DNA of 64,000 nt from Isoetes taiwanensis. Lineage: Eukaryota; Streptophyta; Lycopodiopsida; Isoetales; Isoetaceae. How positions within the stretch are numbered: the first letter of the stretch is position 1; each line of letters starts with the position of its first letter. The stretch is from assembly GCA_021234155.1 (NCBI GenBank), contig JAJEKV010000071.1:3532483-3596482 (forward strand), read 5' to 3'. The notes beneath the pieces are model-generated. The model saw nothing but the letters and a program-made list of their open reading frames with translations, searched no databases and was not told where the DNA came from. Both the position numbers and the translations under genes were made by a program. This document shows, piece by piece, positions 10,538 through 58,514 of the stretch.

Positions 10538-10538
10538 G

Positions 10539-15100: not shown

Positions 15101-18100
15101 AAGGGCGACTACGTATCGATATTGTTTCTTGACTCCATCGATGTCTCATCGTCGAGTCCTCTTGTCGTTATCGTGTTGCCAGAAGAGTGTTGAGGATGTT
15201 GATTGCTTCCTTTTGCAATTTGCATGACATCTCTTCCTTTGATACACATTACGCTATGGATAGGAAGGAATAACAAGGGAACTATACATGCAAAACATAT
15301 AGCTTACATAATTACAATTACTACTAGAGCTATTAGGTCTCCCTTGTGCCTCCCTTCAAGTTGCACCCTACTCCTTGGCAATGTCATCGGTGTTCCTCCG
15401 GTGCAATGGTGTTGATGATCTATATCCTTCTATTTGTGCGTCGGCTCATACTCGGGGTAACTTGTTGATATGCTTGGGCCCTCCGATGTTTGTCGGCTAT
15501 GGCACAACACGCTTTGCATCACATTCCAACTAAAGGTGTGCTTGTCGTTGATGCCCGACATTTCGATCACGCTTCACGATCCTGTTCTCGGCGGTAATTG
15601 TTCTTCCTTCATGATACTTGGAGCTATTTGGGCGTCTCTTGAGGTTTGTCTTGCGATTCCTTTGGCTATACTCCTCTGGAGTTGTTTCTCTTCTGCGATT
15701 GTTCTTTGAATCGTCCATCCTTGGGTTCACCAAGTTGCATGCAAGTCCGTGTGCAAGTCATCGGCTTTCGCCTCGCCTAGTTGCTTCTCCATCGAGCTTC
15801 CAAACTTCCTTGTTTGATCCCCTCGATCACATGGCTTGGGCGTTATCACATTCCCTGGCTATCTTTGTCTTCTTGTCTTGAGGTACCTTAGGTGGCTTTG
15901 ATTGTGCTTTCGTCGGTTTTGATCCCTCTGTTGCCTCTAGGGAGCTCGTGGAAGAAGTCGGTTGCTAGCACTTCTCGACTTTCGGTTTCGACTTTTGTCT
16001 CTCTATGCATGTCGGCCTCTCGGCAAGTAAGGCTTCATGGCTCTTCTCCTGCTTGGCGATGTTGTCGGGATGATGGATCCTTATCTCTGCGCAGCTTGAC
16101 CCTTGCGTTGAAGAAGTATCTGCCTTAGATATACTCTTGTCGTTGAATAGCCTGGCTATTATCTTGAACTCTCTTTTCGCCGAAGGTGCTTTAGTTGCTA
16201 TCCTTGTCGTTAAGGCGTCCGAATGCTTCTACCTTGGGCATTTGGCGTGCCACATGTCGAGAGATATGGTCGGCTTCTTCTCTTCTAATTTTTGGTAGGG
16301 TATCGGCGAAGCCATCACCTAGTTGTTGGGGGCATATCTCCTCGTCGCGGTGCCTTTCGTAAGTGCATCTCCATCTAATCCACGTGTCATAGCGCATTCC
16401 CCTATATTACCACAAGGTGGAATTATGGTCGTCGAGATGTTGTCTTCTTAGTTGGCTCGTTGATGTCGGGGCGTTCCTCCTTCTATTGTTGAGGCCACTC
16501 GTGTCATAAGTTCGTCAAGTGTTCTTTGCTGCCACAAGATGTAGTGTTGCGTCGGCGATGTCACAGTGCGTGGCCCGATGATCTTGACATGACCGGTATT
16601 ATCTCTTATTACGACATTGGGTGGACGAGTTGTCTTCTACTTCAGGCCACTTCCGGAAGTGTTTGGAGTCGAAGGTTTGCTTGGCCTCTGGTCGTTCTCC
16701 CTCGTACTTGCTCTTCCATTTTGATCTTGGGCTATAGTTGTGCTTCCTTGCTTCCTCTTTTGGTAGTCGGTGAAGGAGCTTCTGATCTAAGCGCTAAATC
16801 CCTAAAAATGACTCTAAACTCATGTTTCTCCCTTTGTATCTGTGAGCACCGAGATATACAATAGACATATATGCATTTACATTGGGATTTTAATTCATCG
16901 ACTTTTTCAAAACAACTACGAAGATCTACTTAATTGTTTATACTCCTTTAGGGTTTCCCCTCCTCCTATCGCATTTGACCCTTTGGTTTCTTTGCATCTT
17001 CTTTGTTACGGTTGACTCGGGGTTCCTTTGAGATCTTTGCTACTATTGTTGAGCTTCATGTCGATCCGAGCTCGTCCGCCAATTGCGAAGAGTGTTCGTC
17101 GATGTGATCCCTTGAGAAAGGTGCTCCTCCTTAATGTGTATATTATTCGCCGTGAGGGAATGCGGTGATCGCTCAGCGTCCCTACATGCGGTGTGTCGTT
17201 GCAAGGTTGCCGATGTCGCGGTGCCTTTGATCGCTTAAGTAGGATCACCTAGCTATTGCGGTTGGGCATTCTTGGATGTCTTGAAGCTCACGAGATCATG
17301 GTGGTGGCGGGCATTGGCATTCCTCATGAGGTTGAATTTACGAGTCGACTCTGTTGCTTGGGCTTTGCTTCATTCGAGGTGCCTCTCACGTGCACGGAAG
17401 TGTGGTCATCTCCATTGCCCTTACCATGGCTCCTTACGGTCGCCTTTGCGTGATTTGTATCTCTATTTGGCTAGGTCGTCTCCTCAGTCCTTTGGGTCCT
17501 ATCCATTCGAGTCTCGCACTCCTTGGCTGGCGTATTAAAGCCGATCTTCCTTTGGTTTCTAGGTGTTCACGGGTCCCGAATTCTTTGTTAGCCGCGAGAA
17601 TATTCTCCTCCTTGATCTTGCCCCTAATGCTGATATAGGCCTTCAAGTTGGAGATGTTCACGATATCGTCTCCTCCCTCGTGGTCTCCTGCTGGTGCAAG
17701 GGGCTAGAAGCTCATCTTGGTCAGCCTTACTAGGTGCTTTGTGGTTGCCCTTGGATTTCGCGCCTTTCGTTGGCGTTGCATGACATTCGGCTTGAGCTCG
17801 GGGCTGGGCTGCAATGTGGTGGTTGTCTTCCCTCCGGTTTTTATCGCTCTGTGTTGCCATGACTTCTCCCCTCGACGGAAGATTATGCCTTCCGACCCTA
17901 GCTCGTGATGCTAGCGGCATCGATGTCTAACGTGTTCACGTTTTTATTTTGCTGCCTTGCATTCTTCCATTTGAAACTTCGTGGGCGTCGAGTTGGTGAA
18001 GGCGTCGAGATCCTCTTCACGATGTGACCTCGTCGTGGTGGCGGGGAGGTTGACACCTAGAAAATTCTTGATGCCGTTGGTTACCAATTATTCTTCCCAT

Positions 18101-19020
18101 TTGATGAAGATTGTGATAGGCGGTGGTGTCCGTTCTACTCGTTTGTCGATTGAGGTGTTTGTCGTTGTGCTTCCCTCTCTTGGGTGCGCTTTTTGGTCTC
18201 CTCTCCTTATCAATGCGTACATCGGTGGGGCCTTGATGTCTTCAAGGAGTTGCGCCTCTAGCTCTTACGTGGCTCGGCCCGTCCTTGAAAAGTAGCGCTC
18301 ATATATCCTAGAGTCTAAGGGTCTACTTGAAGGGCTCTCCTACAACATTACGGGCTCTATAAGCAAGCAAGGTGGCTCGGCGGACATTCTTTGGAGACAT
18401 ATCTATAATCTACAAGTCTATGGATATTAGGGCGTGTGGTATGGCATGAAATGAGGGTTGTTTTGCAAGACCTCCATGATGTTTGAGGCATACCCTAAGG
18501 TCCTAACAAAGTTGGTTTGGGGAGTCCAATCTCTACACATGGGGCGGCTTGGGCAGCTCTAGACTCTAGCTCCTTTCTAGGTACCACGGCAATAGGGAAT
18601 GTTAATGTGGCGGCTATATAAGTCAAACTCTATTAGAAGGACACGAGAATTAGGTCAAGGTTTATGCCTTGGCATGGCAGAGGTGATGTACCGGCGGTTG
18701 GACTTGGGTTGCTATGTTGAGGTCTAGATGACTATAACAAAGGGGTGTTCTTGGGCACTTCTATCTAGGAGTAAGGTATCAGCTTGAGGCGAGAGCAATA
18801 CTTGCGAGCTACTAATGGGGTAGGCTTCTATCTACAAACAAACTCTGGTTTGGAAAAACAATTCAAAGGTTTGGGCAATTTTGGTCAATTTGGGCTAGGG
18901 TTTGACATTTCTAGCCTAATTTGAGGTCATAAATGGATTCTAGGCTGTCTAATGGTCCCTATTGCAACAATTTTCAGACGATTTGGAGCTACGTAGCTCA
19001 AGTTATGGAGGTTCAAAGTT
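12164..19020 (-). other. Interior of the LTR element, no recognised protein
   Basis: AT-rich from about 12.2 to 14.9 kb, then a more GC-balanced 15-18.3 kb stretch with many short frames. Some minus-strand frames are basic and Arg/Lys-rich (near 15530-15733 and 17624-17920) and could be gag traces, but none shows a zinc knuckle, protease, polymerase or integrase motif. Confidence 0.5.
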
Positions 19021-19024
19021 TGGA

Positions 19025-19090
19025 GGTCTCACGAGGTTGCGCCTCGCTTCAAAACTAACTTTTTGTTTTGCGACGGTATGGCTGTGAGAC
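19025..19090. repeat. GTCTCAC...GTGAGAC repeat, copy 1
   Basis: About 65 bases bounded by inverted GTCTCAC and GTGAGAC with a shared core CTTCAAAACTAACTTTTTGT. Related copies are at 19222-19286 and 20036-20100, and a matching set is in the second contig at about 39682-40760. Confidence 0.75.
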
Positions 19091-19221
19091 ATCGATCTCA
19101 TTCGATCAAAGGTGTCTAATTTGGGTAAACTAATGGTGTAAGGGTGATGGGCTCATCAAATTAGGGCAGAATCGACCCCTTATTGGGTCAATTTGGGCTT
19201 TTTTGGTCAAGTTTGGCGAGG

Positions 19222-19286
19222 GTCTCACGACTTGCGCCTCGCTTCAAAACTAACTTTTTGTTTTTCGACCCGGCGCGGTGTGAGAC
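19222..19286. repeat. GTCTCAC...GTGAGAC repeat, copy 2
   Basis: Shares edges and core with copy 1, 197 bases away, and also the following GACATCACA. Confidence 0.75.
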
Positions 19287-20035
19287 ATCACACTTTTTGG
19301 TGCGAGAGTATCCTATTTTACTAAAATAAAAACTACTACTTGCTAACTTTCGTCCTAATTAAGCAAGATTTGACACATAAACTACTCAAAATTATCATGT
19401 ATTAACAAAATTATTGATTATTTACAACATATCTCTTGGGGATCTCCCTTAATTAAACTAGCTAATTACATGCCTTCCCTCATGAGGGTTTGCTCAACCC
19501 ATGAGCAGTAGCAATTTTGTTGAGTCTTCAAAATGTTGGACGACTTACGCTCTGCTTTGCTTTTTGAGCCTTGGCCTCCGCTCTCGTTACGTGTCCTCTC
19601 CTCTTCCTATTTCCTTGGCCTCCTTGGCCTCTGCACATTTCGCCTTATCGAGAAAGTCGGCGCTGATGCATTTGGTGCGCATCATGTCGATTCAGTCACG
19701 GTGTCTATCGAGATCTTTGTCTCTATCTAGCTTAAGGGCCTTGGTTCTAAATCTAAGGCTTAGCCATTAATATTATCTAACATTATTAAAGCTTAATTTT
19801 AATTAAAATTATAATTCAAGCATAAGCGATGCCGCCCTCGAGTGGTTGTACGGGGGTTTGGGGGGGTTCAACCACGTGGGTGGGAGGTTCAATTCTCGCT
19901 ACTCAAGGAATTCTTTTTAAGATGAGGTTCAAAGAGATTGAAAAAACTAGACTAATCGGCTAGATCCTAGGCTAAGATTGAATTACCAAGTTACTTTTTA
20001 AATTTTATAACTTCTCAAAATTTGTTTCCATCAAT

Positions 20036-20100
20036 GTCTCCGCGACTTAAAGCCTCGTCATAAAACTAAAGTTTAGTTATTGAACCGGTATGTGTGAGAC
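20036..20100. repeat. GTCTCAC...GTGAGAC repeat, copy 3
   Basis: Same bounded length as copies 1 and 2 with a diverged core (AAACTAAAGTTTAGTTATTG), about 0.8 kb downstream. Confidence 0.65.
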
Positions 20101-20102
20101 CA

Positions 20103-20178
20103 CCTTACGGCTCATTCTTTTTAGTTTTATTAAGTTCCAACCTTACGGCTCATTCTTTTTAGTTTTATTAAGTTCCAA
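20103..20178. repeat. 38-bp tandem duplication
   Basis: Two identical units of CCTTACGGCTCATTCTTTTT plus an AGTTTTATTAAGTTCCAA end. The corresponding unit pair is at about 40785-40836 in the second copy. Confidence 0.85.
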
Positions 20179-20345
20179 TTCACCTAAGCGTGCTTTATTA
20201 AATTCCAATCCACTTACTTCATTTACTAGCTTAGCATAAACTACAAAAATGAGAAAAAAATTTCCCACTTTTCAGGGTTTGAGGATCCTATCAAGTTAGT
20301 ACTCTTGGGGAGCATGGCGGTGCTTTGCTCTTGGTCTCCAAGAAC

Positions 20346-20361
20346 ATTGCTCGATACCCTT
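20346..20361 (-). other. Degraded iMet-type primer site of the minus-strand LTR element
   Basis: On the minus strand the bases next to the 5' LTR read GGGTATCGAGCAATG, close to the canonical TGGTATCAGAGC. The corresponding site in the second copy (41008-41022) is altered differently. Confidence 0.6.
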
Positions 20362-21967
20362 TGTGGCGTCCCCTACTCATATCACTGATTGCACTCTCAC
20401 AGGTATACAAGCGAGTTCATCCCCATACCAGCTCCATGCTAATATAGGGCCCTCCACGTATCCTTTGCAACCTTGAAGAGTTCGAGTGGGAAGAATGAAG
20501 GGTCCTTTACCCTGTCTCCCTCGGGGCCTACCTAGCCGCGAAGCGTAAACATACATGTCGATTAGTACATACATCAACATCATATGACCATCACGAAGGA
20601 TGGTCCTCCACATATCTGCATAGACAAAGATCAGCACATCACATAGGGAATCCTACCCAAGGCTCGGACTCAAAGGGATGGTGACGGCTTGGGTCTCGAG
20701 TTCATTTGGAGCCGAATTCATGGCAATGGATTTGGGGCATAAGAACATGGCATAGGGTTGTCCCTCCATCCGCCCCTCACATGCACACTTTGCGAGTAGG
20801 TGAAAAGTGTTGGGACTCCCCTTAGCCCGCCCGGATGCATAGCCAAGGGGGCTATATCTGGTTGCATCTCCCGGTTCCGATGGGGCGGTGGGGATCTCTC
20901 CCTCGAGAGATCTACATGCCGACTCAAAGGTGACTAGAGGGCCACCCTTTGCCGGTATTCGACTTGAACTCAATGGAAGGTCATATTCACCACCTCACGA
21001 GTGTCGCCGAGCCCATGCCTTGCCCACACGCGGTGGCAAGCCATTAGACCTAGTCACGGTGACCCCGGCGGTCTCTACACACCCAGGGGTCGTTCAAGAA
21101 TCGAACATGAACCTCCTTATAAGCGGTCGGCCCCTTCACCCACAACCGGTGTGGCTCTTGTACCACGAGCCGCATCTATAGTGTGCTAGAGAGGCTAATC
21201 TAGGAGCATCTACTACCAAGCTTTAGGTCTCTACCCCCTTCCCAATACAAGGAGTTCACGAGATACATCATCCATATACATCACGGAAGAACTAAAGAAC
21301 AAGATCTAATCTATATCATAGAGTTAGGTTCTTTAGTTAGAGTCTGTATCTACTCATCTAGAGATCTAGATAGCTGCTAAAGGCGATTTAATAGGCTAAA
21401 CCTCTCGATACAATGGTGGAAAAGCGGTTTAGACCATTAAATGGACTACATCCCTGATCCATGAGTTGCTCCTCGACTGAAGTTTGACCATCCTACTTGC
21501 GGCTTTCGAATCAAGGAAACTAATGGTGCCATTCTCTCGAAGACGGTCGGGAGGCGGATTTTGACTCATAGAGCAGCCAAAGCAGAGCTCTAAAACCTAG
21601 GAGCGAAAAATGGGCAAGTTAGGGTTCTTCTACTTAAATAGGCAAGGGTTGGGGCTTAGGGTTTCCAATTATCCCTTTAGGCATGTGGGATGGTGGAAAT
21701 GGCCCACTTGCCTTTAATGGCTAGGTGGCCAAATGTGCCTACATGGAAATGTGTGCACCTAAATGTGCCCACATGGAAATGTGTGCACCTTAATAAATGT
21801 GCATGTGCACATTAATAAGAAGTGCACATACCTAGCAAGTTGCCCCTAGGGCTACTCACTGTTACACGTCGGGCGCGTACCGTCGGTTGGAGTGGCGTTG
21901 TGCAGCGTGTGAACCCGATAAAGATTATACGCCCCGGGACCGTGTATCTTGGCTTTGGAACGCCACA
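20362..21967 (-). repeat. LTR (5' LTR in element orientation)
   Basis: Partner of 10551-12151. It is followed directly by the AGAGC target duplication and the resumed copia sequence. Confidence 0.92.
21630..21641 (-). promoter_or_regulatory. LTR TATA box
   Basis: Same motif in the 5' LTR of the element, where it would drive transcription on the minus strand. Confidence 0.5.
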
Positions 21968-21972
21968 AGAGC
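21968..21972. other. Right target-site duplication AGAGC
   Basis: Identical to 10546-10550, which immediately precedes the left LTR. This proves a single integration event between the two points. Confidence 0.88.
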
Positions 21973-22527
21973 CATCTCAATTATGTCAGCGGTTTTGGAG
22001 CAAGTTTGCTCAACACCATAGATGTATACAAAGGTGGTCCAGATTCCAAATATGGAAGGATGCCATAATGCATGTTACGGATGTGGAGGAGCTTTGGGAG
22101 GTAGTTGATCCTAATAGCTTAGTGGCGTGAAGTGCTAACTAGAACAACCTCAAAAAGTTCGATTCGGAGCCGCAGTGGTCAATCTGCGAGGGAAGACTTG
22201 GAGCTGGGTGCAAAGCTCGGCACTAGTCTTTGCCGTCTCTTGGAGGAGGTACCGATGGGGGAGGAGGCAAATCACCTGGGCTAAAAGTCAAAGGAAGCAC
22301 AAGGAATCATAACTTGTAAGGTAAGTCCTGCTATACGTTTGAAATTAAGGTCTCCTTAAGCACTATGAGGAGAAAACATCCTCTCAAATAGATTTATTGG
22401 AAAATGAACTAAGAAATCTAAAGCTTAGAGAGGATGAAGATGTATCCGAGTTTTTCAATAAGTTTGATAACTTAATTGCTGACCTAGAAGGGGCTATCCG
22501 AAAGAAGTCGAGGTGTTACAAATTTCA
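21968..22527 (+). mobile_element. Copia gag N-terminal part, first copy
   Basis: Resumes directly after the LTR-element insertion. Recognisable gag wording of the UBN2/copia type: LLNTIDVYKGG, WKDAIMHV, VEELWEVVDPNSL and later a Glu/Lys-rich helical stretch. Broken; the cleaner version is 42644-43207. Belongs with the LTR and primer site at 9917-10550. Confidence 0.75.
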
Positions 22528-23683
22528 AGAGCAATAGGAATAGAATAGAATAGAATATGATTTTATCGTCCCCAGAGACCAACCGGCCTATGGGACCCAA
22601 GTACAAAAGAGAGCAAAGAGTATTACTACCGGGATTTAAAACCCCCAGCCAGAAGGGTTTAGGAGGAAAAACCTTAGTAGCAATAAGGATGCCGACATCT
22701 TTGCCTACGGGTTATATACATAATCACAAGTACTGGTGAGGTTAATGCCTGGACGGGGGCATAAGCGAAGTCACAGATCCATTACCTCGGAGGTACGATC
22801 CCAACAAGCCTACAGAGGCCGTGCTCAAGAGCTCATGCAAGGCCCGATGGGGCACAACTAACCGGAGCATACCGAGCCGGATATGCAAATGACACGGAAG
22901 CACGGAGGGTGTGACTTTCATCCTCAATGGCTCCGTTGGCCCGGATTAATGACATCGCCCTCCGCAGCGGCTCGAATCCATCTCCCTGTCTCAATGCGGA
23001 GGTGGTGTGCACTGTCGCGAATGGAAGCAATCACCCCCGCGGCTTTCATGGGTAGATGGGTGCACGTAGTGGTGTGGGCCCTCGTGAGCATGGGATTAAA
23101 CTGCCGATAATTTGCCACCTTGACATGTGACAGGCCTGCGATCCCAAAGCTTGGCCATGAAGCAAGCATCCAAATGCTCTTGCTTCAAAGGCGTGGCGTT
23201 CAACGGTGTATGCTTGGTCCACATCGGTGCCTCGCACATTCCATAGCGAGAACCATCGGGCTTGCTTGTCTTTCAAAGCCGGGCTTTGAGTCGCTGCGGG
23301 CCCATCGCCCTTTGCCAAAGCAAGGTTGGGCAGCGGGCTTCATCCATAGCCACCACCTTACGAAATAAATAATGTGGCGTTCAGTATGACCCTCAGAATG
23401 GAAGGAAGCTTTTGTCTCTGGAGCAAGATCCGATATGGGACCGTGGATTTCACTCCCGGTGCCGGGCCAAGAAGGCCTTACTGCTCTAGATCGTTCCAAG
23501 TGGTGAGGGATATCACTGGCCCCCACACTTCTACCCCATAGAGGAGGACCGGTTCAACCAAGGCCCTGAACAAGTGTGCCTGATGACCCCATGCATACAG
23601 CTCGCCTTGTGATTGTTGTTTTGCATTGCATCTGAGGGCTTTCCAACTGCAGGTGACCCGTAACCACGATGGATGCATCCGGT
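22528..23683 (-). mobile_element. LINE 3' fragment inserted in copia gag, first copy
   Basis: Minus-strand relative of the LINE at 7187-8946. It starts at about the YGVEVWGP / TWNDLEQ region and runs through the zinc motif to the 3' UTR hairpin (22619-22688) and a (ATTCT)n tail at about 22540-22556. The 5' end falls inside the polymerase C-terminal region, so it is more truncated than the plus-strand copy. Sequence noise breaks the frame repeatedly. Confidence 0.8.
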
Positions 23684-24893
23684 GTGTGGTAGTAGGAGAG
23701 AATGAAACATTGGCATTGTTCATTAGAAATACAAGCAAAAGTAGGGAGGAGGCAGAAGTCATGCTTAGAACTGAATGGGAGCAAAAGAAAGTATTGAGAC
23801 AAAGCCAAAATGAAGAAACACCTGAAATATTAGTAATGAAAAGGAAAGGCAAAATAATTTGCTATCATCTTGTCATGAGGCGGGGGCACTATAAAAGTGA
23901 ATGCCCTAAATTAAAGAAAGATTTTAATTGCTACAATTGTGGGGGAAGAAAACATCACGACCTCAAGTGCCCCACACCAAAAATTATGGTAAATCTTCGG
24001 AGGAGGAAGGGGGTGACTCAGAGGAAGAGTTAAAAGCGGAGGTAGGGGTGGAGGCTCGAGAAAGCATACATTGCACAAAGAAGAACAAGAGGCTAAGGCT
24101 AAGACTGAAACACAAAGATGAAGATGAGGTATTAAGTGATTTTGCGGTTATCAATGAAAATTCATGTGCTAATAATTTTGATCATTTGATAGTTGATTGG
24201 ATTTGAAAGATCGATGAGTCAAGGATGCTGAAATCTTGAAGAAATTTTCCACTACAAAATCAAGAAAAATTCAAGTTGGAAATGGGGCCTTGCAAGATAT
24301 TCAAGGAAGTGGACTTTTGCAGTTAAAAGACTTAAATGGAAATATTGTAAATATTGAAGATGTATTGTGTGTTCGACAATAATCAAAAACTTGATTTGAA
24401 GCCGAGTTATGTGATTTGGGATATAGGGTGACATTTGAAATTTGAACAATGTAATGTCTTTCTCAAAAATGAATTGAAGTTTTATGCTAAAAGAGTTGGC
24501 AACTTGTTTGAACTAAGCAATCTTGTGCATTATGGTGTAAATGCAATATCTGAAGTTGGTGCAGAATTATGGCACAATAGATTAGCACACACAGACTACA
24601 AGAAACTAGAAAGTCTGCACAAACAAGGTCTCATTGATTATTGTGACAGCAAAGCTAATCATATCTGTGAAGGATGTGCTCTAGGAAAATTCCATAGGCC
24701 GCCATTTGCTAAAAGACAATCTAAAACTCAGCAAACATTGGAATTAGTGCACTCAGACTTATGTGGCCCATTAAATGTGAGAGGAAGAGGTAACAAAAGG
24801 TATTTCATAACCTTTACCGATGACTACAGTCGAAAATGTAAGGCATATTGCTTAGAAAAGATAATGGAGAAAGGGCAATACCTGTGTTTTTAA
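23684..24893 (+). mobile_element. Copia gag-protease-integrase part, first copy
   Basis: Same content as 44386-45587 (zinc knuckles, protease region, integrase zinc region and the start of the integrase core), but broken at several points, apparently by sequence noise. No reverse transcriptase or RNase H follows. Confidence 0.75.
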
Positions 24894-27000
24894 GCTAACC
24901 GGGCTGTAGCTCACTTTCGATTACCGATGAACATAGGTATCCACTCATCCTCTATTTATTCATTTTAAAATCTTATAGCATTCAAACACGTTGCTTGTCC
25001 TTAACCATATACATTTCTTCATTCTTATCTAATCTGGATAATGATGTTTATGGTGAAAACAGCTTGTTTGCCGAAATATCCAACTGGCACAATGATTGTT
25101 GGCAAATCTTTTTGATTTGTGACGGGAATATATATTTAATTTGTGGGCAGAAAAATACATGTGTTTCATTGTTTTAAGAATTGCAGCATGCAGAATCTAC
25201 CTAAGATGGACCCAGCTAGTCGGATTAGGATCGTGGGAGAGATTAGCATCTGAAGAGAGCAGTTATGGAGAATAGATTTAGGATGCCACCTGTTAAATGG
25301 TTGGACCTGATGATTGGGATAATGTAACGAATGTATCCCACAAAACTTTTAGGAATTTTAGAAAACTCATTCTGAGCCAAATCCATGGAGTTCAACTTGG
25401 ACCAATCACTTGCCTCAGCTTCTCCGTATTGCCGTATTTTGAAGAATCCAGGTCGTACCATCTGCCCGGCATGTATCTAGTCTATGCAAATCTGGCATTA
25501 AATCATGAAATCTAAAATTGAATGGATTGAATTGAAGCGGAGAACTAAATCTGGGGCACTTCAAGAAAAAAACAGAGTATACTTACCTTCCGTCTACCAC
25601 TAGTGAGAAGGTTAGGATACACTTTCTATTCTCCTCAAAAAATTATTGACAAAATAAGAATCGAAGTCACACAAAAAGGACTACCTCATTCTAAGATTGG
25701 GAGATTCGGTGCCAATATTATCAACGACTACGGTTTTGGTTGGAGATATGATAAGAAACTTGTTGACTACTTGTATAAACCATTTAGGATATTTTGCGGA
25801 TGAGATGATACCACGATGTAACGCCCACTTGCACGGAATGGAGAAATTCATAGACAAAAAATAGGTCATGTAAAGAACATTAGACCTTAATATTGTGAAG
25901 TCTCTTGAGGTGAAAAAATATCTTTGAAAAAAGGCTGAATAGAGTGCCTTTCGTCTCACATCCTCAATGTTCCGGGGAGCGGTTGTAGGAGTTGAACATG
26001 AGGTATTCTTGTATGGTTACGTATTATATGGAACTAGTGGAATTCGAGAGAAAAATACCTTTGAATGTGTTTTATGCTAAAGGACCGGGAATTTATGCGG
26101 TTGTAATACGGTTTGAGGGATAATCTATACTAAGAAAGACCTTAGCAATGGTTGTATGTTCACTTGGTTCATAGCACAACGAGAATTTGCCTTTGAATAT
26201 AAGAAGCATCAAAGCGATTGGACTTTTGCCACACCTAATACAATTCGTTGTTTCTGAATTAGAGACAAAATCAAGTGGCCGGTTGTGGCGGCTTGATACA
26301 TCCATTACTCCGCTTTACGTCGGATTCTTGAGATCTTCATTAGCGCCAATGAAAATCAAATTAAAGCCCTAATATCAACAAACACGGAACCTCACAACCC
26401 TCAACAGATTCACGCTCCTCCTGATTTAGATATTTCACGCTCCTCTAAGCGAGATGGGCTGGATTTTGGCAATGGGGATCAATGCACTTGCTAAAATTTC
26501 TTGCTCCCCGCCCTCGCCATAGTCTTATATTCAAAAACTTTGCAAGAAAAAACTTACGCTCGCATTGCTCTTTCATATAAAACTCCTTCATATTGTCGGG
26601 CGTGCGGCAACAGTTCAACGCCATTAAACTTGCCGGATTCTTTCTTTGGCGTCATCGATGGCCATGGCGGCGGACTTGAAAAAACATTAAACACAAACCG
26701 CTGATTGGCGGCCGGAAGAAAATAAGAATTATTTTTAGATGACGAAAAAATCAAACCTACTTTATATATGTTTAGAAAGGACATAATTTTGAGTCATGTT
26801 TTAATGCTTTTATGACATCACACACATATTATATACTTAATAAAAATAATTTAAATGGTAAAGCTTCTTGGAGGTCGGGTGGTCTTACGCCATGAACTTG
26901 GTCCCCACTGTCACAACAAAGATCAAACGAATTTGGGTGGGATGCGATGGGGAGTGTGCCCGAGGATGTGGGGAGAGTATAAGGCAACTATTAAACATCT
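24894..27000. other. Unidentified region, first copy
   Basis: Counterpart of 45588-47660, where the frames are more open; see the entries there. Here the same frames are interrupted. Confidence 0.5.
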
Positions 27001-27004
27001 CGAG

Positions 27005-48321: not shown

Positions 48322-48865
48322 TGTCGAATGTCATATGACATAGACCTATGATAAAGAGTTGAAATTGAAAATTGTGATGAACTATTGTTGTCATAATCTA
48401 TGTTATATGACATAGACATATGCCATATGTCATATAGGAGTATGCCATGCACCACTTTTGTAGTAGATGACATAGGTCTATTACATGTAAGGCATGGAAT
48501 ATGTTATAAGATACAAACATAAACGTGTCATGTATCATATGCCATGTAGGTCTACGTCATGAAACATCTCATATGTCAGATGGTATAAGCTTGTGATTTC
48601 TATGCCATATGACATTGGTATATATGACATAGAGTATAATGTGTCATATGACATACAATGTCCTATGTCATAAGCATAATCTATGTCATATGCCATAAAC
48701 ATAGAAATATGACATATGCCATATAGGTATGTGTCATATGCTATATGGGCCTACGTCATGAAGCATGCACATGTGTTAGATGATATAGGGCTATGATTTT
48801 TATTTGATATGATATGGATATATGACACATCATAGAATATGTGTCGTATGACATACAATGTCCTA
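48322..48865. repeat. ATATGACATA-rich degenerate array
   Basis: Roughly 545 bases filled with ATATGACATA, TATGTCATA and ATATGCCATAT words in both orientations at irregular spacing. Each word is close to self-complementary, so many small hairpins are possible. Nearly identical to 27622-28165. Confidence 0.87.
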
Positions 48866-49664
48866 GAAAAGATATACCTTTGGTGCAATGAACTTTGGCA
48901 AATTTTCGTCTATAGTTTTTTTGAAAAGCTTTTTATCCATGACTTCACCATCGCCTATACATTCTTAAATTTGAGTTAATGCACTTATGAGCCTAATGAC
49001 TTTGAAATCCTACAGGGAATGGTTTGCTTTGTAGAAATATCTTCGCTGGGGGATTTTCAATTTTAACGAGTTGTCCCCAAAAATTTGTGGGCACTCATTG
49101 AGAATTAAAAATAAGGACTTCTTGAGCTTATACAACCAGAAAGATGGCGCAGCGCACGTCCCAGCCATTTTGGCTATGGCCATATAGCTTGAACGTAGCA
49201 AACCCATAAGGAAAAATCCCCCGCCAAAAGTAGTGGAACATTTATTATAAGTTCAAAATTAAAGATAAATTATATGGATGAAAAAATACCCCATCTAATG
49301 TTAAGAACAACAGTCCAGATTTGGCAGAGATAAATGGCCCAAATGGTGCTCCGGATACTTTGCTTATATTGGATCTATATATCCAATGGTTGGCTTAGGC
49401 ACCATTTGACTAATTTTTTGAAGATTCCACTTGACTGACTAGATTTGCCTTTGCGCATTACTTTCTTCGTCTGAAACTGGAAGCGATGGACCACAGGGTA
49501 TGGGGACATTTTTTCGCGTTAATACCATGCTGGTTTGCATGAATTTTAGCACTTGCATTGGTGGAGCTATGATAGGGGGCTTTAGCCTTAACTTTTGCAC
49601 AGTTGAACCCTTGATATGCACGTCCCATAACATATCTTTACCCTCATATTTCTGACATGATTTT
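48866..49664. other. No recognisable gene
   Basis: AT-rich spacer; nothing found. Confidence 0.5.
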
Positions 49665-49866
49665 AAGATAAGATAAGATAAGATGAATTTTTACGTCCAC
49701 AGGAACCCAACGGGTTATGGGACGGCACATGCAAGGGCAACAGCCCATCTAAAACCTGGGGACTAGGCCCCATCACCAAACACAATAACCAAATATTAAA
49801 AGGCTACAAAGAATAAGATAAGATATAATGCTAATGCTAGTGGTAAATTTATGCTTCTAAAATTAT

Positions 49867-50508
49867 CTAGACATAGCCAGTCCAAGGATTGGAAGGCCAT
49901 TGATCTAGAATAATTGCTGCGCCTCCCCTATACACTGCCCATTTCTTTTGCAGGCGGGCTGCCTTCACCTTGCAGAGCTCCTCCTTACGGTTACACAATT
50001 GAAGAGGGGAGAGATCCTCCTGTACTGAGAAACTAGTCCCTCTGAGATAGTTTCCATGCTGAAGAACATGTAAGCGGCTAAGAGTGTCTTGAAACCGAAC
50101 CAAAAGATGGCGAGGACGATCAGGTCTTGCCGCTCCCACCTTAGTAGTGGAGACAACTCCATCAGCCTTCACATGCATGACATCAGTGAAAAAATGCAAA
50201 GCAACATCCATATCAGAAAGGGCATCATCTTCTGCCTCTGCAACCCCTATAATACGCAAGTTCAGGCTCCTAGTAACAGAAGATACTGAGGTAGCCTGCT
50301 CCTGTCTGCTAGCTCGGCACTGCGACTCCTGGACCCCTTGGGATTGTGGAGATGTTTGTATGCCCACCTCAACATGTTCCCTTTCCAATGTCTGCACTTC
50401 CGCTTCAACACAATGTTTCTTCTGTGGCTGTAATTCTATATCTAAGTGTCTGTACTGAGGCATCACTTGTGCCCACATACTGGGCTTTAGGGTCTGGAAC
50501 GAAGACAT
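49867..50508 (-). CDS. LINE ORF1-like RNA-binding protein, C-terminal part
   Basis: A 213-codon frame. Residues 33-60 are a Glu-rich, coil-like stretch. Residues 81-200 resemble the L1-type ORF1 RRM/CTD (transposase_22): LNLRIIGV, RPRHLLVRFQDTLSRLHVLQ, RGTSFSVQEDLSPLQ, RKEELCKVKAARLQKKW and YRGGAAIIL. Such proteins bind LINE RNA as trimers. An in-frame stop lies directly upstream, and the likely N-terminal half is the frame at 50566-50901, in the same phase but separated by stops. The first copy (about 29.2-29.7 kb) is shredded. Confidence 0.65.
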   Translation of the reverse strand: MSSFQTLKPSMWAQVMPQYRHLDIELQPQKKHCVEAEVQTLEREHVEVGIQTSPQSQGVQESQCRASRQEQATSVSSVTRSLNLRIIGVAEAEDDALSDMDVALHFFTDVMHVKADGVVSTTKVGAARPDRPRHLLVRFQDTLSRLHVLQHGNYLRGTSFSVQEDLSPLQLCNRKEELCKVKAARLQKKWAVYRGGAAIILDQWPSNPWTGYV

Positions 50509-50565
50509 GTATTAACTGTAATAAGCGTGTCCATCTCTCAATAGACACGATCATAGATGTGGCCG

Positions 50566-50901
50566 TCATTCCTCCCTCAGAATGAATGAGTCGTGTGTAG
50601 GTGGCAAACACTGAACTTGCCGGTCTAGAGCACTTTGGAGATCCTCCCGATCTTGGAAGGTAAATGTACCAGGCCTGCTTGTGCCGATATGAAGAGGCCG
50701 CTGGGAACCAAAAAGAGAAGATGGCAAATCCATTATTACACTGGAATTAGCTTGCCCCTGATCATGGAGTTGTATGCTAGACCGAGCACTTCTGGGACGA
50801 GAGACCTCCTGTGCAAACAATGATTCATGAGTAGGAGGCTTTTTCTTTTCCCTGGCCATCCTTACACCAAATCTCTCCTTATTACTAGCCCTTTCTGTCA
50901 T
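50566..50901 (-). CDS. LINE ORF1 N-terminal part, probable
   Basis: A 111-codon frame starting with a good Met (MTERASNKERFGVRMAREKK), rich in Ser, Arg and Gln, in the same phase as 49867-50508 and directly upstream on the minus strand. It has no family motif of its own; the assignment rests on position. Confidence 0.4.
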   Translation of the reverse strand: MTERASNKERFGVRMAREKKKPPTHESLFAQEVSRPRSARSSIQLHDQGQANSSVIMDLPSSLFGSQRPLHIGTSRPGTFTFQDREDLQSALDRQVQCLPPTHDSFILREE

Positions 50902-50990
50902 GGTGAAGCTCTCTAAATGAAATCAACACGGCTATATACAAAAGTTAAATCAAAGCGGAAGCCTTAGTCTAAAAGATTTGAAACACAATA

Positions 50991-51689
50991 TCCAATACTG
51001 CAAACCCTACCAAAGCCGGCCGGAACAGGACTGTTTTGACACAGAAAACGTAACCAAAGATGGGCATACCATACACCATCGAAAAGATCCTAGAGAGAGC
51101 TTTCCAACGCAATAAGCCTCACCTGAAACGGAGTCCTGGATCAAACGTTATGCTAGAAACTGTGTTGCCGGCAAAAAATTGCACTACATGGAGGAAATAT
51201 ATTCACTCTCACATGCACGACTGTCAAGTCTACCTAATGGTTTACTTGTATTTTACCTGTAAAGATGGGTTAGCACATGACAATGTTATGGCATCTTTAA
51301 CTTGCCCATGGTAGGGACTATGATCCAATTGTATTGATAGGAGTAAACATGGGCATTTAAACAAGTCAAATTATTAGATTGTGGCCTCTATTATAGGTTT
51401 TCACCCATATGGTTGGAATGATATGGACATTTTGGCCGTAGGCATTATGTTTAGCTCTTATGGAATACAAGGCTTTCTTTAAGCTCTAAGTATGGACGTG
51501 GTTTGAAAGTCAATACTCTTTTAACCATGGAAAAATACCATGGTTAAACCTATGATAATTGCATATTTGTATACTGGAAATAAATATTTACCTTGTTAAT
51601 ACTTTTGCCAAGTCTTACATAGCAAACATATCCAGGGCAGAAACATTCTCTGGCGGTGCTACTATTGGCACCCTAACTATACATTCAAA
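50991..51689. other. No recognisable gene
   Basis: AT-rich; may hold the LINE 5' edge. A 22-bp near-palindrome around two CCATGG sites is at about 51525-51547. Confidence 0.4.
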
Positions 51690-52110
51690 ACCAAACGTAT
51701 ATCGAGTTAGATATACTGCATATATCGAACTCGATATACAAATATACAGCATATATCGAGTTAGATATACGGAATATATCGAACTCTATATACGATTTTT
51801 TTTTTTAATTTTCGATTCTGGCCGGCCGAAAAATTCCGTATAATACACAATATATAAGCGTCATTTTTATACAATTATACGGCATATATAGCGTATATCG
51901 AACTCGATATATGCCATATACATATATCGCACTCGATATACGCCATATACGTAAAAAGTTATATACGAGTTTTTATTTTTGCAGCCCATGGCCTTTGCCA
52001 CATTACAAAAGACGTATATCGAGTTAGATATACGTCTTTTTTTTGGCACCATGCCACTGACGTATATTTAGCGCGATATACAAAATGTATATCGAACTCG
52101 ATATACGTCA
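51690..52110. repeat. Cluster of TATATCGAACTCGATATA palindromes
   Basis: At least eight imperfect copies of the self-complementary TATATCGAACTCGATATA or its variant ATATCGAGTTAGATATA, near 51697, 51719, 51752, 51773, 51893, 51925, 52014 and 52090. Two sites carry longer matching arms (for example ACGTATATCGAGTTAGATAT followed by ACGT near 52013-52037). Spacing is irregular. Confidence 0.85.
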
Positions 52111-52277
52111 CTTCTATAAAATATCAATAGCTCGTGTGTGAGACGCATCGACTCGTCCACGTTTTCACAAGGCCCCCAAAAATGAACTTGTATAAAAAAT
52201 TAGCATGAAAACCAGTATATATGTGATTTTTTTATACGACAATACAAAATGTAAAGAAAAATCATGTGTTCTTCCTA

Positions 52278-53060
52278 GTTTTGCAAAATCAATAGTGGTT
52301 GATATCATATTATTTGTACTAATTTATAGATTTACAATAGTTTCTAGAAATCATCATTAGTTTGTATAATTGTTTTTTAATGTACAACGATTTAGCAAAA
52401 TCATATCTTGTTTAATTACATGATTTCTACGATTGTACAATAGGTTTTTGAAATCATCAATAGTTTAGAAGAGGTGTTTTAAGCATATGCTGATTTTGAA
52501 AAACCAATAGTGGCTCATATCGTATTTTTTTGTGCTAATTCAAATTTTTACACTAGTTTCTAGGAATCATTATTAGTTCGTAAGGTTGTTTTTAAGTGTA
52601 GATTGATTTAGCAAAATCACTAATAGTTTATATCATATTTAATTACCTGAATTCTAGAATCGTATAATAGTTGTTTGAAATCATCCATAGTTTAGAAGAT
52701 GTATTTTAAGCATATATTGATTTTGCAAGACCAATAGTGCTTCAGATCATATTTTTTGTACTAATTCAAAGATTTACGGAAATCATAATTAGTTTGTGAG
52801 ATTGGTTTTAAGTGTATAGTTTTTTAGCAAAATCATTGCTAGTTCATATCATGTTTACTTACATGAATTCTACAATCATACAATAGTTTTCTGAAATCAT
52901 CAATAGTTTAGAAGATGTGTTTTAGGCACATATTGATTTTGCAAAACCATTCCTAGTTCGTACTATATTTAACTTATGAATTCTAGAGTTTATGATGGTC
53001 TTTGAAAATCATCATTAATTTAATGGAATGATTTTTCTATATACATTTTTAGTATCATAA
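52278..53060. repeat. About 220-bp AT-rich tandem repeat, 3.5 units
   Basis: Units begin near 52278, 52492, 52719 and 52934 (spacings 214, 227 and 215) with a TTTTGCAAAACCAATAGTGG-like block, then AATCATCATTAGTTTGT, TTTAGCAAAATCA, ACATGAATTCTA and AATCATCAATAGTTTAGAAG. Unit divergence is considerable, so an old satellite-like array. Confidence 0.85.
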
Positions 53061-53650
53061 TTTCAGATGCGTTTACATGCTAGTTGTCACAAATTTGTAT
53101 TCTACCACGTTCTTCTTATTAGTTAGCTTATTCTTGTGTTAATCGTGTTGTTAGTCTTGTATTTTTTCAAATGCAACTATTTTGAGCCTTAATAAAGATG
53201 CAAAGCTTCTAAATATATAGGAAGCACACGCATGTAAGGCTTCGTAGAACCAAATGAGCCTTATCAATAAATTTTACAAAAGAAAAATAAACAACATGCC
53301 ACTAATGACATAGATTAAAATCAATGTGTTGCTTTGCAAAAAAAGAAACCTTGTAATGAATTGATATCTGGCTTGTAACTTTGTAGCAATATTAGAAACT
53401 TGTGATTAGTAACTTGTGATTACTGTAACGTCAAAAACCAAAGGTGAATGCTTTGCCTCCGTTACTTAATATTGTAAGAAACCTTATAATGTCATTTAGC
53501 CAAGAAATTGACAATTGTTTTGTGAGGTTTAGCGCAGGAATAATGACCATTCATATGTAAATATAGAGATACCATCAACACCATCTCAAATAACAATTTT
53601 ATAGCGCGTAGCTCAAAAAACTACTACAATGTCAAGGTTAATATCTTATG
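53061..53650. other. No recognisable gene
   Basis: AT-rich spacer between two repeat blocks. Confidence 0.5.
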
Positions 53651-53880
53651 AAAGGAGCATGCCGGTTGGCATGCAACGACATTTCGACTGTGCGGTTGCA
53701 TCCAAAAGGCCAGAGTTATCCTATGACACATGTCTGAGGAGTAGGGAATTGATCAAACGCTCGGACTGCCAAGTATGTGCTATATAGCACTAGGCTAGGA
53801 GTGCGTCGAGTGAAAGATAGACTAGTTGCTTGTACCAAATCGAGTTTGACTATGTTGGTCATAATCGTTGGTCCCTACAG
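53651..53880. repeat. About 230-bp direct repeat, left unit
   Basis: Shares with 54910-55140 the order GCATGCCGGTTGGCATGCAA, ATTTCGACTGTGCGGTTGCA, GTTATCCTATGACACATGTC and AGATAGACTAGTTGCTTGTA. The pair brackets 1.0 kb of sequence that includes the inverted-repeat element at 54162-54778. Confidence 0.85.
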
Positions 53881-54161
53881 TAAACTGGATTCTTTGGACT
53901 CATGCTCAAAGTCAAAACCATGGCAGGAATGGCTGAACTGGAGGGGCACATCATTTCCCCCTCGTGTCCTATGCCGGTGAAGGGGAAATTTTGGGGGTTG
54001 GGACATCCGGCGGATGTTCATTTTTTCTTTTTGAGAAGATTTCCTGGAACATGAGCTACTATTTGAACGGTGGGATTAACAAATGGAGCTGTTTTATTGC
54101 CCGATACCTAAACCCTAGTAAATTTGTAGGGTTTAGGTTTTGGCATCCTTCCCCCGCCTCT

Positions 54162-54521
54162 GGCGGGGATAGGTTCAACATCGATAACGCTTTATCGTAT
54201 CACGTATTTTTCGTTTGATCGGCACAAATTTGACGTTTATCACGCCAAAAATACGCCCAAAAAATTTCCGGCGTCGAAAAATTTCGCGTAAAAACCTTCA
54301 GGGGTTTTCGCTGAACTTTTTCGCGAAAGCAAAACCACGCGAAAAAAAAAAAAAAATCGCGTAGTTTAAACCTTTTACCGGTAAAAGAAAAAAGTTTAAA
54401 CCGAAACCGAAGGTTTAAAAAAAAAAAAAAAAAAAAAATTATTATTATTATTGCGGTGACCCTCGCCTAGCGTGCCACATTGAATTGTGCCATGCCGAGG
54501 GTGGGTGTCATTGCTGACGCG

Positions 54522-54562
<41 letters not shown>

Positions 54563-54778
54563 AATTTTTTTTCTAATTTTTTTTCACAGAAGCGAACCTT
54601 TCAGTTTTACGCTGAACTGCTTTGGCTTGTTTAACGTAAAAAATAAAAAAAAAAAAAAAAAAAATTCCTACCATGAGTATTAAATACTGAAAAAAATATT
54701 TATTTTTCCCAAAATACGTATTTTTGAATTTATACGCCCTGAAAAAATAATTTCATACGCATGTAACCTATCCCCGCC
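54162..54778. mobile_element. A-rich element with 14-bp terminal inverted repeats
   Basis: GGCGGGGATAGGTT at 54162-54175 and its perfect reverse complement at 54765-54778 enclose 617 bases of A-homopolymers, TTTAAACC words and CGCG-containing words. Size and ends suit a MITE or other non-autonomous DNA element. No clear target duplication found. The same region in the first copy (about 33370-33800) is strongly altered. Confidence 0.5.
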
Positions 54779-54909
54779 TCAAGGGGTCGAGCTCAGGTAT
54801 TGTGGTTCCTTCGAGGGTTCGAAGAGAGATAGGAGAACAAAAAACTCTCCCCAAGTGCCAGTTCCAAACTTGCCCCATTGTGATGGCTCGCGAACTCTGT
54901 ACATTGTGC

Positions 54910-55140
54910 GACCGGAGCATGCCGGTTGGCATGCAATGGCATTTCGACTGTGCGGTTGCATCCAAAAGGCCAAAGTTATCCTATGACACATGTCTAAGGA
55001 GTAGGGAATCGATCAAACACCCGGACTGCCAAGTACGTGCTAGCATTTAATTATAGCACTAGGCTAGGAGTGCATCGAGTGAAAGATAGACTAGTTGCTT
55101 GTAGCAAATCGAGTTTGGCTCTGTTGGTCATAATCATTGT
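54910..55140. repeat. About 230-bp direct repeat, right unit
   Basis: Partner of 53651-53880; about 90% similar by eye apart from a 14-bp insertion (TTTAATTATAGCAC region). Confidence 0.85.
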
Positions 55141-56820
55141 TCTCATTTGTGGGGTATAGTTCCATAAGTTGGGGTATATAGTGTAGAAAAGTTAGCAAGA
55201 TACTATAAGGATTGGGCCAAATGTACACAAAGATGTTGATTCAATACATGTATTTGAACAACTTGAAGTGAAGAGCCTCTCGCTACCCTGCGTCGCCTCT
55301 CGTATAAATATGCACCTAAACGAAAGCGGGTTCGAAGGGGGATTTTGTTAAAAGTATAGGATGTAATGGTTTATGTTGTCAAAAGATATTTTTGGCCCCT
55401 TCAAGGCTTGGGAGGGAAGTCGCACATCTTAGACAAAATATGCAGCATAATTCTTGCTTTCTATTAAGTGGGAAAAAGCTAATGTTTGCAATTCTTAGCC
55501 TTAAAGAATAACATGAATTTCACAAATTCGACCATCATATCAATTGTTTGCAATAACCTGAGGTAGGAGGATGTAGATTTATGAAAAAAGACAATATACT
55601 TGATGAGCGGACTTCAAACAACCATAATTAAAAAGAAAACATACATCTATCATTATTGTGCAACAAACAAAAGCCATCTTTGAATTGAGAAGCAATGAAA
55701 AAGAAAAAGCAACTTAGACTTGAAGCAAGACAACCTTGAAATTTTATGAGGCCCAAATGCAAGAAGTAAATTGGGTCCAATTTAGAAATATACACTTGAA
55801 GGACCTGTACAAACTTGAGATAAGTGACATTATTGATTTATTGGTAATTCACTATAAAATATCTCCCCTACAATAATAATTTTGTCACTTAAATGGTCAC
55901 TCCAAGCCTTTGCGAGCTGCACAAATAGGAAACAATAGTTAGCCATTGATTTGCATCAAACGAATTTGTGAATCCAACAAAGCAAACTAATGAATTAAAT
56001 CAAAGAGCTTTATTCAAGTCATGTCATAGAGCAAAAGGGTCACATAACGGCTTGTATATTTGTGTAAAATTCAAGAACTAGAGAATGCAAAATCCTTGGC
56101 CTTGACACGAGATATTACGAAATCCATAGGCTTGTGACAATCCAGAACCTCCTTCGTACACTTCTATAGCAGTCAGAAGTGATGCACCAAAACCGAGTTA
56201 TAATGGCTATAGTACCAATTGAAGATATTACAAAATTCATAGCTAATCACAGAGCTATGAATCTCAAAAGTTATAAGCTCTAAAAAAGTTTACTTCTAAA
56301 TGTCCATCGATTCAACAAGATCACTCTTTTCAAATATATTCACAAAGGCAACTAACTCAATTTGTATCTTGCTGGGATAACTTTGACTTGCTGGAATAGA
56401 TTTGTTTTCTATTGGAAGGCAAATAAGTCAAATTGTGGCCAGGTTAGCCCATCTACATGCAAACAGAGCATCAAGAAATGGCAATGGATTTCTTATAATT
56501 CAAGATTTCTACAACATCAAATGGTCAAGTTTGTTTTAGTCTTTTACCTCAAGGTCCTTGAGGTTTCTTTGTCATGCTCTAAAACCCACAGAGCTAAAAA
56601 GATTCTCTATAACGAATAGCCTTTCTTGTCGTCCTAGTTACGAGCAAATACATTACAAGATTTAATGCTAGTTTACGCCATGGGGTCTAAATAATATCAC
56701 ATTATGAAACCATGGGGGGAAGGGATTTTATGAGTCGGATAAGTAGGTAATAGTGGCAAAGCAAGAAGTGGCACTAGAAATGAGAAACCAAACTTCTTCC
56801 CTTTTAAAAATGCGACTTTT
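55141..56820. other. No recognisable gene
   Basis: AT-rich; frames are short and without family resemblance. Confidence 0.5.
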
Positions 56821-56829
56821 TTAAAAATT

Positions 56830-57780
56830 ATGGGTGATGATATGGCATGAGCATGTAAGATGACAACTACGAGTGATGACGTGGCAAAGCATGAAGGCAT
56901 AAAAAAATGAAGAATATGCCTAGCCAATTTGCAACTTTTTAGAAGAAGCACATGGCATTTCTTTGGCACATCACATTATATGACTAACACGTTTGGTTTG
57001 GCAAACTGAATAGGGTTTCAAATTGGGATGTCAATATGTGATGTGCCAAATATCCTATGAGGTTGATATTCATTTGGGTAAGACAATCATCTTTTGTCCT
57101 CTTAGAACATGCTAATTCTATGAGTAGCTTATGCTGCACCAAAGATGTGTGTCTCTTCCGAGAAATCTCCAAGCTCAAGCCGCCTTGCGGGGTTGAAATT
57201 TGCTTCGTTGGAGTAGAGTGGCAATGCAGGAGTGGAATAGTGGCACATACGGTGACATGACAATGATATGGCCCTAGAAATAATGAGGTGGCATCAAAAG
57301 AGCAAACAAAATTCTTTCTTGTGTAAAATTTATGGGAGATGACATGGCATGTGTATGGTGAGGTGGTAAGATGAGTGGTGAGATGGCAAAAGATGAAGGG
57401 GTGGAGAAACACAGAATTTGCCTAGACATGATAACTAAGCATTCTATGTGCTTTAGATAAGAAAATGACTAGGCCAATAAAAAAAAAGGGGGATTAAAAG
57501 ATTAAGTAGGTTATAGTGGCAAGCAAGGTGACTAAAAATGATGAGGTGTTAAAAGAAAGAGAAACCGAACTTTGTTTTTTTGAAAATGCGACTTCTACAA
57601 AAATTATGGGTGATGACATGGCATGAGCATGTGAGGTGGCAACTATGAGTGACGACATGGCAAAAGATGAAGGAATAGAAAAATGAAGAATTTGCCTCGT
57701 GCAACTTTTTAAAAGAAGCATATTCACCATACTGACGTGGCATTTATTTGAAAGATGTGGCACGTCACATTACATGCCTG
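56830..57780. repeat. GACATGGCA-rich diverged repeat
   Basis: Two related blocks begin near 56830 and 57605, both reading GGGTGATGAxATGGCATGAG, then a GTGACGACATGGCAAA-like word, GAAGAATTTGCC and GCAACTTTTTA(G/A)AAGAAGCA. A partial block lies near 57335. Many ACATGGCA and GGTGGCAA words recur in between. Confidence 0.65.
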
Positions 57781-58514
57781 TCACATTCGCAGCCGCCTCC
57801 TATTCTTGCAATGATCACATTGCACATAGATCGGGAATCGAATATGGTATTTGTTAATCCGTCAAAATTTGCAGGTTTGAATTGATGGGTACATGCCAAT
57901 CCCGTCCAGACAAACTTCGGTGCTGAGCTATCCTAAAACATCATGGATCGGAAGTGTAGAGGCCAAATTGCTCTATGCGGCAAATAATCTTAACCCTCCA
58001 TCCTGATCTTGCCTGCTGACTGCTGACGTGAAATTTTTCCCGCTTCCACGTCTCACAACCATTTCTACAACATGATTCCTAACGACATATTTATATTATA
58101 TGGAAGTGATAAAGATGCTAAAAAACGAACAAATAAGCAGCATCATGCTTCAGAGCAAGACATATGTTATGGGACCTTAACACATTGGTTCTCAGGTTTA
58201 CAGGCTGAGATTGAATCTCAGCCGTTGATTCCAGTGCTGTTACCACTTAGTAACATTCCACTGGCCCGAAATTTCTACTCTCTTTCACTCTGTTTCTTGT
58301 AACTTCCTAGGGTGTTACAGTAATTCTTTATAACATCCTTGCGTGTTATGGCAGATCGATGGTTTTCAGAAGTTTCTGGAGTAGGAAGCTTGACATTCGA
58401 GCCAGCTATGGCAGTTCCATTCCAAGCTGAGCTATGGCTTCAAAGACACCCACGCATTTCTTTGCATACAACCCCTGATTCTTGCCCCTGCTTCCGGCGG
58501 AATCCCTAACATAG
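57781..58514. other. End of duplicated block, no gene
   Basis: Single-copy-looking sequence up to 58425, where similarity to the first contig ends. 57560-57870 differs strongly from the corresponding 36550-36840. Confidence 0.5.

What the first reader, a model, noticed from the sequence alone, without database searches (positions are those of the whole stretch)
16781..58425. A 20.8-kb 'tandem duplication' that meets exactly at a 13-N gap
Everything from 16781 to 37413 recurs in order at 37427-58425, including a nested set of unrelated elements, the same AGAGC insertion point and the same broken copia end. One copy stops and the other starts at the N run. A real duplication need not break at a gap; two overlapping contig ends placed in series would. 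Divergence is worst in the last 800 bases of the left contig, as expected at a contig end. Any gene or repeat count from this region would be doubled.
Basis: partly seen in the sequence, partly recalled or inferred. Interest (0 to 1): 0.8.

Follow-up and report, generated by a model that had tools for sequence, protein, structure and literature searches.

The report
Scaffolding artefact, not tandem duplication
Two overlapping pieces of one probably plant-derived stretch of DNA appear to have been laid end to end by scaffolding software, so about 20.8 thousand bases are written twice, and the differences between the copies look largely like sequencing errors at sites where plants methylate DNA.

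Summary
In detail: 16784-37412 and 37430-58425 align as one collinear match (86.96% identity), meeting at the window's only N run, 13 N at 37414-37426. Best reading: two overlapping contig ends of one locus placed in series. (1) A 13-N spacer between contigs that share sequence, with the shared part written twice, is documented Bionano scaffolder output (PMC7649008, passages). (2) The repeat's inner ends are the contig ends, and the tested flanks have no distant second copy. (3) The 13% difference does not look like evolution: with B as reference, 22% of CG and 29% of CHG cytosines differ against about 8% elsewhere; of 298 CAG/CTG sites of the right copy that differ in the left, 14 are simple deamination-type changes. 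More than 12 columns from CG/CHG, isolated substitutions number 8 in 6189 columns. This fits unpolished nanopore consensus over methylated transposons; platform, software and species are inferred. Correction: CAG/CTG loss begins near 11 kb, about 6 kb before the overlap, so the overlap alone did not cause it. Without reads or optical-map data, a very recent real duplication is not excluded.

The parts
16781..37413 (+). Copy A: overlap at the right end of the left contig; mostly unpolished-looking (CAG/CTG observed/expected 0.21-0.96 in 14 windows)
37414..37426 (.). 13-N spacer, the only N run in the window; matches the fixed gap that the Bionano scaffolder writes between contigs that share sequence
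   Evidence: PMC7649008 passages
37427..58425 (+). Copy B: overlap at the left end of the right contig; better in patches (CAG/CTG observed/expected 0.38-1.27 in 14 windows)
10551..21967 (+). Long-LTR retrotransposon, LTRs 10551-12151 and 20362-21967, with AGAGC on both sides (10546, 21968); the overlap begins inside its internal region
41026..42643 (+). Second reading of the same 3' LTR, in the right contig, followed by AGAGC at 42644
44241..45584 (+). Copia-type open frame in copy B (zf-CCHC, Pol_BBD, gag_pre-integrs above Pfam cut-offs; rve below); in copy A it matches in two pieces in different frames
33366..33930. Block of copy A that does not align with its counterpart in B (54156-54892); left out of the counts and of the totals
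10781..16780 (.). Tract outside the overlap that already shows CAG/CTG depletion (observed/expected 0.23-0.50 in 4 windows)

Best explanation
Assembly artefact. The left contig ends at 37413 and the right contig begins at 37427; they are overlapping ends of one locus that an optical-map scaffolder placed in series with its fixed 13-N spacer instead of merging. They were probably not merged because their ends differ through nanopore basecalling errors at methylated CG and CHG cytosines in transposons; the left copy stayed largely uncorrected while the right copy was corrected in patches. Shown here: the geometry, the 13 N, the sequence contexts of the differences and the low rate of isolated substitutions elsewhere. 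Inferred: the Bionano software, nanopore reads, a methylated plant source and the polishing history.
For: One N run of exactly 13. One collinear dovetail match whose inner ends are the contig ends; tested flanks single. The Bionano tool writes contig 1, 13 N, contig 2 and so duplicates the shared region, and short reads tend to polish only one copy (PMC7649008, passages). With B as reference, CG 22.3% and CHG 29.4% differ against CHH 7.6% and A/T 8.0%; with A as reference 23.9% and 19.2% against 6.9% and 7.8%; same ranking with a second aligner apart from CG versus CHG order. CAG/CTG: 91 shared, 106 A-only, 287 B-only; 61 of 298 differing B sites align to CGG or CCG in A, 14 of 298 are simple deamination-type. 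Columns more than 12 from any CG/CHG: 8 isolated substitutions in 6189 columns, 0 in 3084 over 16784-28500. A 225-bp repeat pair is 89.9% alike within B but 75.0% within A. Two optical-map label sites are at matching places in both copies (19731/40386, 22355/43036).
Against: CAG/CTG depletion begins near 11 kb, about 6 kb outside the overlap, so the overlap is not its only cause. C>T makes up 30-44% of the differences at CG and CHG cytosines, and 117 of 310 A CG sites differing in B read TG or CA; part of this may be A miscalling CAG/CTG as CGG/CCG, but some true deamination is not excluded. One block does not align. One DLE-1-type site in each copy and three BspQI-type sites of B lack an exact counterpart. 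PMC7649008 says such overlaps usually are allelic. The isolated-substitution rate is also low with control motifs (6 in 2571 for GC/GDC), so it bounds the divergence rather than proving its cause. No reads, depth or optical map were available, and the organism was not identified.
Confidence: 0.87

Rival explanations
1. Haplotypic (heterotype) false duplication: the two contigs are two alleles of a heterozygous locus placed in series. Still an artefact, but with real allelic differences.
For: PMC7649008 says these overlaps usually correspond to allelic duplications (passage); heterotype was the main source of false duplication in the vertebrate study PMC9516828 (passages).
Against: Isolated substitutions more than 12 columns from CG/CHG: 8 in 6189 columns, 0 in 3084 over 16784-28500. 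The differences are concentrated at CG/CHG, with CAG/CTG loss strongly one-sided (106 A-only, 287 B-only).
Confidence: 0.07
2. Real, very recent tandem duplication of about 20.8 kb, with the assembly broken at or near its junction and both copies carrying basecalling errors.
For: Near-identical true sequence away from CG/CHG is also what a very recent duplication would give; sequence alone cannot separate the two.
Against: Needs the contig break to fall at the junction and the 13-N spacer known from overlapping contigs to be there by coincidence.
Confidence: 0.05
3. Real, old tandem duplication whose copies have diverged by about 13%.
For: Overall identity 87-88%.
Against: Exact run of 687 columns against at most 116 in 1,000 permutations (the permutation ignores clustering of CG/CHG); transitions 707 to transversions 793; 14 of 298 differing CAG/CTG sites deamination-type; the 225-bp pair is 89.9% alike in B and 75.0% in A.
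Confidence: 0.01

Closest known systems
Bionano 13-N artificial duplication (the case BiSCoT corrects; PMC7649008, passages)
   Same: Two contig ends with shared sequence, written in series with a 13-N gap; one copy less polished than the other
   Different: Use of this software for this assembly is inferred; the CAG/CTG loss extends about 6 kb beyond the overlap
Homotype false duplication at contig boundaries (PMC8081667, passages; PMC9516828, passages)
   Same: One locus written twice in tandem with a gap between, tied to sequencing error, of roughly long-read size
   Different: Read depth and k-mer copy number, used there to classify, were not available here
Nanopore basecalling loss in plants (PMC9749173, passages)
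   Same: Names plant DNA methylation as a likely cause of lost basecalling accuracy
   Different: The passages seen do not describe the CAG/CTG to CGG/CCG replacement seen here

Membership tests
Bionano 13-N artificial duplication | A gap of exactly 13 N between the two copies | tested here: met
   37414-37426; rule in PMC7649008
Bionano 13-N artificial duplication | The end of contig 1 repeats the start of contig 2 | tested here: met
   A 16784-37412 to B 37430-58425
Bionano 13-N artificial duplication | Shared optical-map labels | tested here: inconclusive
   Of the CTTAAG sites, three lie in each copy and two pairs match in place; GCTCTTC has three in B and none in A. Enzyme sites are recalled and the enzyme used is unknown
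Bionano 13-N artificial duplication | The assembly was scaffolded with Bionano maps | not testable with these tools
   No genome is held and the record is unnamed
Homotype false duplication | Read depth or k-mer copy number below that of a true duplication | not testable with these tools
   No reads
Homotype false duplication | Copies do not carry true haplotype differences | tested here: inconclusive
   8 isolated substitutions in 6189 columns, 0 in 3084 over 16784-28500; the filter can hide true differences
Heterotype (haplotypic) false duplication | Haplotype-specific variants confirmed by reads | not testable with these tools
   No reads; low isolated-substitution rate speaks against
LTR retrotransposon (10551-21967) | Paired LTRs flanked by a 5-bp target-site duplication | tested here: met
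   LTR pair 10551-12151 and 20362-21967; AGAGC at 10546 and 21968
LTR retrotransposon (10551-21967) | Pol domains between the LTRs | tested here: not met
   No Pfam match in six frames scanned between the LTRs (16493-16861; five); other frames were not scanned and the tract looks error-rich, so this is weak

The most novel reading that the evidence does not exclude
A genuine, very recent tandem duplication of about 20.8 kb of nested retrotransposons, whose copies look 13% diverged only because methylated CG and CHG sites were miscalled differently in each.
Probability: 0.05. Interest if true: 0.3.

Novelty: not a real feature. Interest (0 to 1): 0.18.

Why it matters
If the reading is right, gene, transposon and copy-number counts from this region are doubled. 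The more general caution is that unpolished nanopore consensus over methylated transposons can mimic more than 10% divergence, so ages of LTR insertions or duplications taken from such tracts would be wrong. Depletion of CAG/CTG (0.21-0.58 of expectation in 12 of 14 windows of copy A, against 1.01-1.34 in seven left-flank windows and 1.04-1.23 in four right-flank windows) may serve as a quick flag, and a paired false duplication gives an internal measure of that error.

Tried and rejected
The window's own genome is not held, so copy number across the genome could not be examined; the species was not identified. Rfam gave no match at gathering thresholds. Nine literature searches were made. Phrase searches for the 13-N rule were unspecific or empty, though one search listed the BiSCoT paper, which one search then targeted. 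A passage look at PMC10027222 gave nothing relevant.

'Clean patches are simply polished patches' was rejected as the full account. Windows with no difference hold few CG/CHG columns (mean 5.0 per 100 in 16 windows, 15.3 in 189 others), differences rise with motif content (Spearman 0.70), and the 687-column exact run (A 27652) holds only 6 CG and 2 CHG. The permutation test does not allow for this clustering.

A three-copy clock argument was weakened on re-checking. One search used a left 3' LTR cut 37 bases short, which inflated A-private differences (A 103, B 122, O 49); the tests based on those numbers should be disregarded. With full ends (three gap settings) private differences are O 56-71, A 85-90, B 123-136. 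B exceeds O in all three (p below 1e-5); A exceeds O only weakly (p 0.012, 0.029, 0.16). The insertion/deletion contrast between A and B is not significant there (p 0.08-0.11).

Overlap-driven mis-mapping as the only cause of the poor tract was rejected, because CAG/CTG depletion begins near 11 kb, outside the overlap.

Rows left out: the unalignable block A 33366-33930 was dropped and from the totals (not from its 298 replaced sites); one search kept 20,706 of 21,462 columns.
Full report
Observation. The window has a single N run, 13 bases at 37414-37426. Sequence 16784-37412 aligns with 37430-58425 in one collinear match of 21,462 columns at 86.96% identity, with 1,500 mismatches and 739 gap openings. 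The match ends one base before the end of the left contig and starts three bases after the start of the right contig. The flanks tested (15000-16783, 58426-60000) have no second copy elsewhere in the window, only short local repeats in the second. That is the geometry of a dovetail overlap.

Anatomy. A retrotransposon with LTRs of about 1.6 kb sits at 10551-21967 with AGAGC on each side (10546, 21968). The right contig starts inside this element and shows its 3' LTR (41026-42643) and the same AGAGC (42644) again. The 5' target site lies in a sequence that resembles a tRNA primer-binding site (recalled motif). A copia-type frame follows downstream: 44241-45584 in B matches Pol_BBD, gag_pre-integrs and zf-CCHC above Pfam cut-offs and rve below. 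In A the B frame matches in two overlapping pieces in different frames (60.6% and 66.5% identity). Of ten frames scanned (five in each copy) only 24432-24890 of A matched; no reverse-transcriptase domain was found in these or in 46191-46679.

What the differences are. They are not spread evenly: the longest exact run is 687 columns against at most 116 in 1,000 permutations, and of 207 windows of 100 columns 16 have no difference and 32 have 20 or more (unalignable block dropped). They are concentrated in methylation contexts: with B as reference 22.3% of CG and 29.4% of CHG cytosines differ, against 7.6% of CHH and 8.0% of A/T; with A as reference 23.9% and 19.2% against 6.9% and 7.8%. A second aligner gives 31% and 34% against 11% with B as reference, 31% and 26% against 10% with A. 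The rate falls with distance from the nearest CG/CHG in either copy: 0.365, 0.235, 0.146, 0.086 at 0, 1, 2, 3 columns, and 0.036-0.038 beyond 12. Part of this fall comes from counting motifs in either copy; at control motifs the rate is 0.196 (GC/GDC) and 0.128 (TA-type).

They are not simply methylation-driven mutation. C>T makes up 30-32% of differences at CG and CHG with B as reference and 38-44% with A; the rest are transversions and deletions. Among B CAG/CTG sites that differ in A, 14 of 298 are simple deamination-type changes, while 61 of 298 align to CGG or CCG. Outside the unalignable block 91 CAG/CTG sites are shared, 106 are A-only and 287 B-only. Against this, 117 of 310 A CG sites that differ in B read TG or CA there (48 of 248 the other way). 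Some of these will be the same events, a CAG or CTG read as CGG or CCG in A, but true deamination in part is not excluded. A two-unit tandem repeat shows the loss directly: both units in B carry CCTGG where both in A carry CGG. CAG/CTG observed/expected is 1.01-1.34 in the seven windows of 281-10780, 0.23-0.50 in the four of 10781-16780, 0.21-0.96 in the 14 of A, 0.38-1.27 in the 14 of B, and 1.04-1.23 in the four of the right flank; the reversed control GAC/GTC fluctuates between 0.49 and 1.44 without such a step. I read this as nanopore consensus in which methylated CHG and CG cytosines were miscalled, corrected in patches of B but hardly in A. The platform and the methylation are inferred.

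How different the copies really are. In columns more than 12 from any CG/CHG in either copy there are 8 isolated substitutions (5 transitions) in 6189 columns, and none in 3084 over 16784-28500; other differences there are 155 indel columns and 65 clustered substitutions. So about 0.1% looks SNP-like, though the filter removes some true differences, and control motifs also give low values (6 in 2571 and 2 in 1223 for GC/GDC). Internal repeats agree that A carries extra error: a 225-bp pair is 89.9% alike within B but 75.0% within A, and three 223-bp units match their own counterparts at 91-95% but other units at 72-80%. Substitutions are strand-asymmetric near B's start (A-to-B changes GA+TC 188, AG+CT 81) and purine-biased near A's end (80 to 32); of the ten such tests in five segments most others are weak or absent. 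This could fit consensus from few reads at each contig end.

Mechanism. PMC7649008 (passages) states that when two contigs share labels the Bionano tool outputs contig 1, a 13-N gap and contig 2, duplicating the shared region; that such overlaps usually are allelic; and that short reads tend to align to one copy, leaving the other unpolished. PMC8081667 (passages) describes one locus written twice at contig boundaries with a gap between. PMC8389630 (passages) calls these artifactual duplications (negative gaps). PMC10151396 (passages) notes that polishing repetitive regions is difficult. PMC9749173 (passages) names plant methylation as a likely source of basecalling loss. Not shown here: the software, the platform, the species and the reads.

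Results against the reading. CAG/CTG loss begins near 11 kb, about 6 kb before the overlap. One block (33366-33930 against 54156-54892) does not align; it is rich in A/T runs, and B's version has 14-bp inverted ends and folds better than 20 of 20 shuffles. Label sites are only partly shared. The third-copy comparison supports excess difference in B strongly and in A weakly (which replaces). Read depth was not available.

Verdict. The tandem duplication is most likely not real, and its apparent divergence is probably largely basecalling error in methylated contexts.

Noticed in passing
10781-16780: CAG/CTG trinucleotides are at 0.23-0.50 of expectation in this tract, outside the overlap and largely inside the LTR element, against 1.01-1.34 to its left.
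   Followed up: partly
10535-10555: The long-LTR element appears inserted at a tRNA primer-binding-site-like sequence (recalled motif) of another retroelement.
   Followed up: no
54162-54778 (counterpart about 33366-33930): Fold-back element with 14-bp perfect inverted ends and long A runs in copy B; the A version does not align and no such 14-bp ends were listed there.
   Followed up: partly
7121-8380: Open frame of 419 aa with a reverse transcriptase (RVT_1) match; 7771-8942 is about 68% alike to 22538-23697 and 67% to 43218-44328 in inverted orientation.
   Followed up: no
3711-4069: Minisatellite with units of about 29, 58 and 87 bases beginning GTGATTCC.
   Followed up: no
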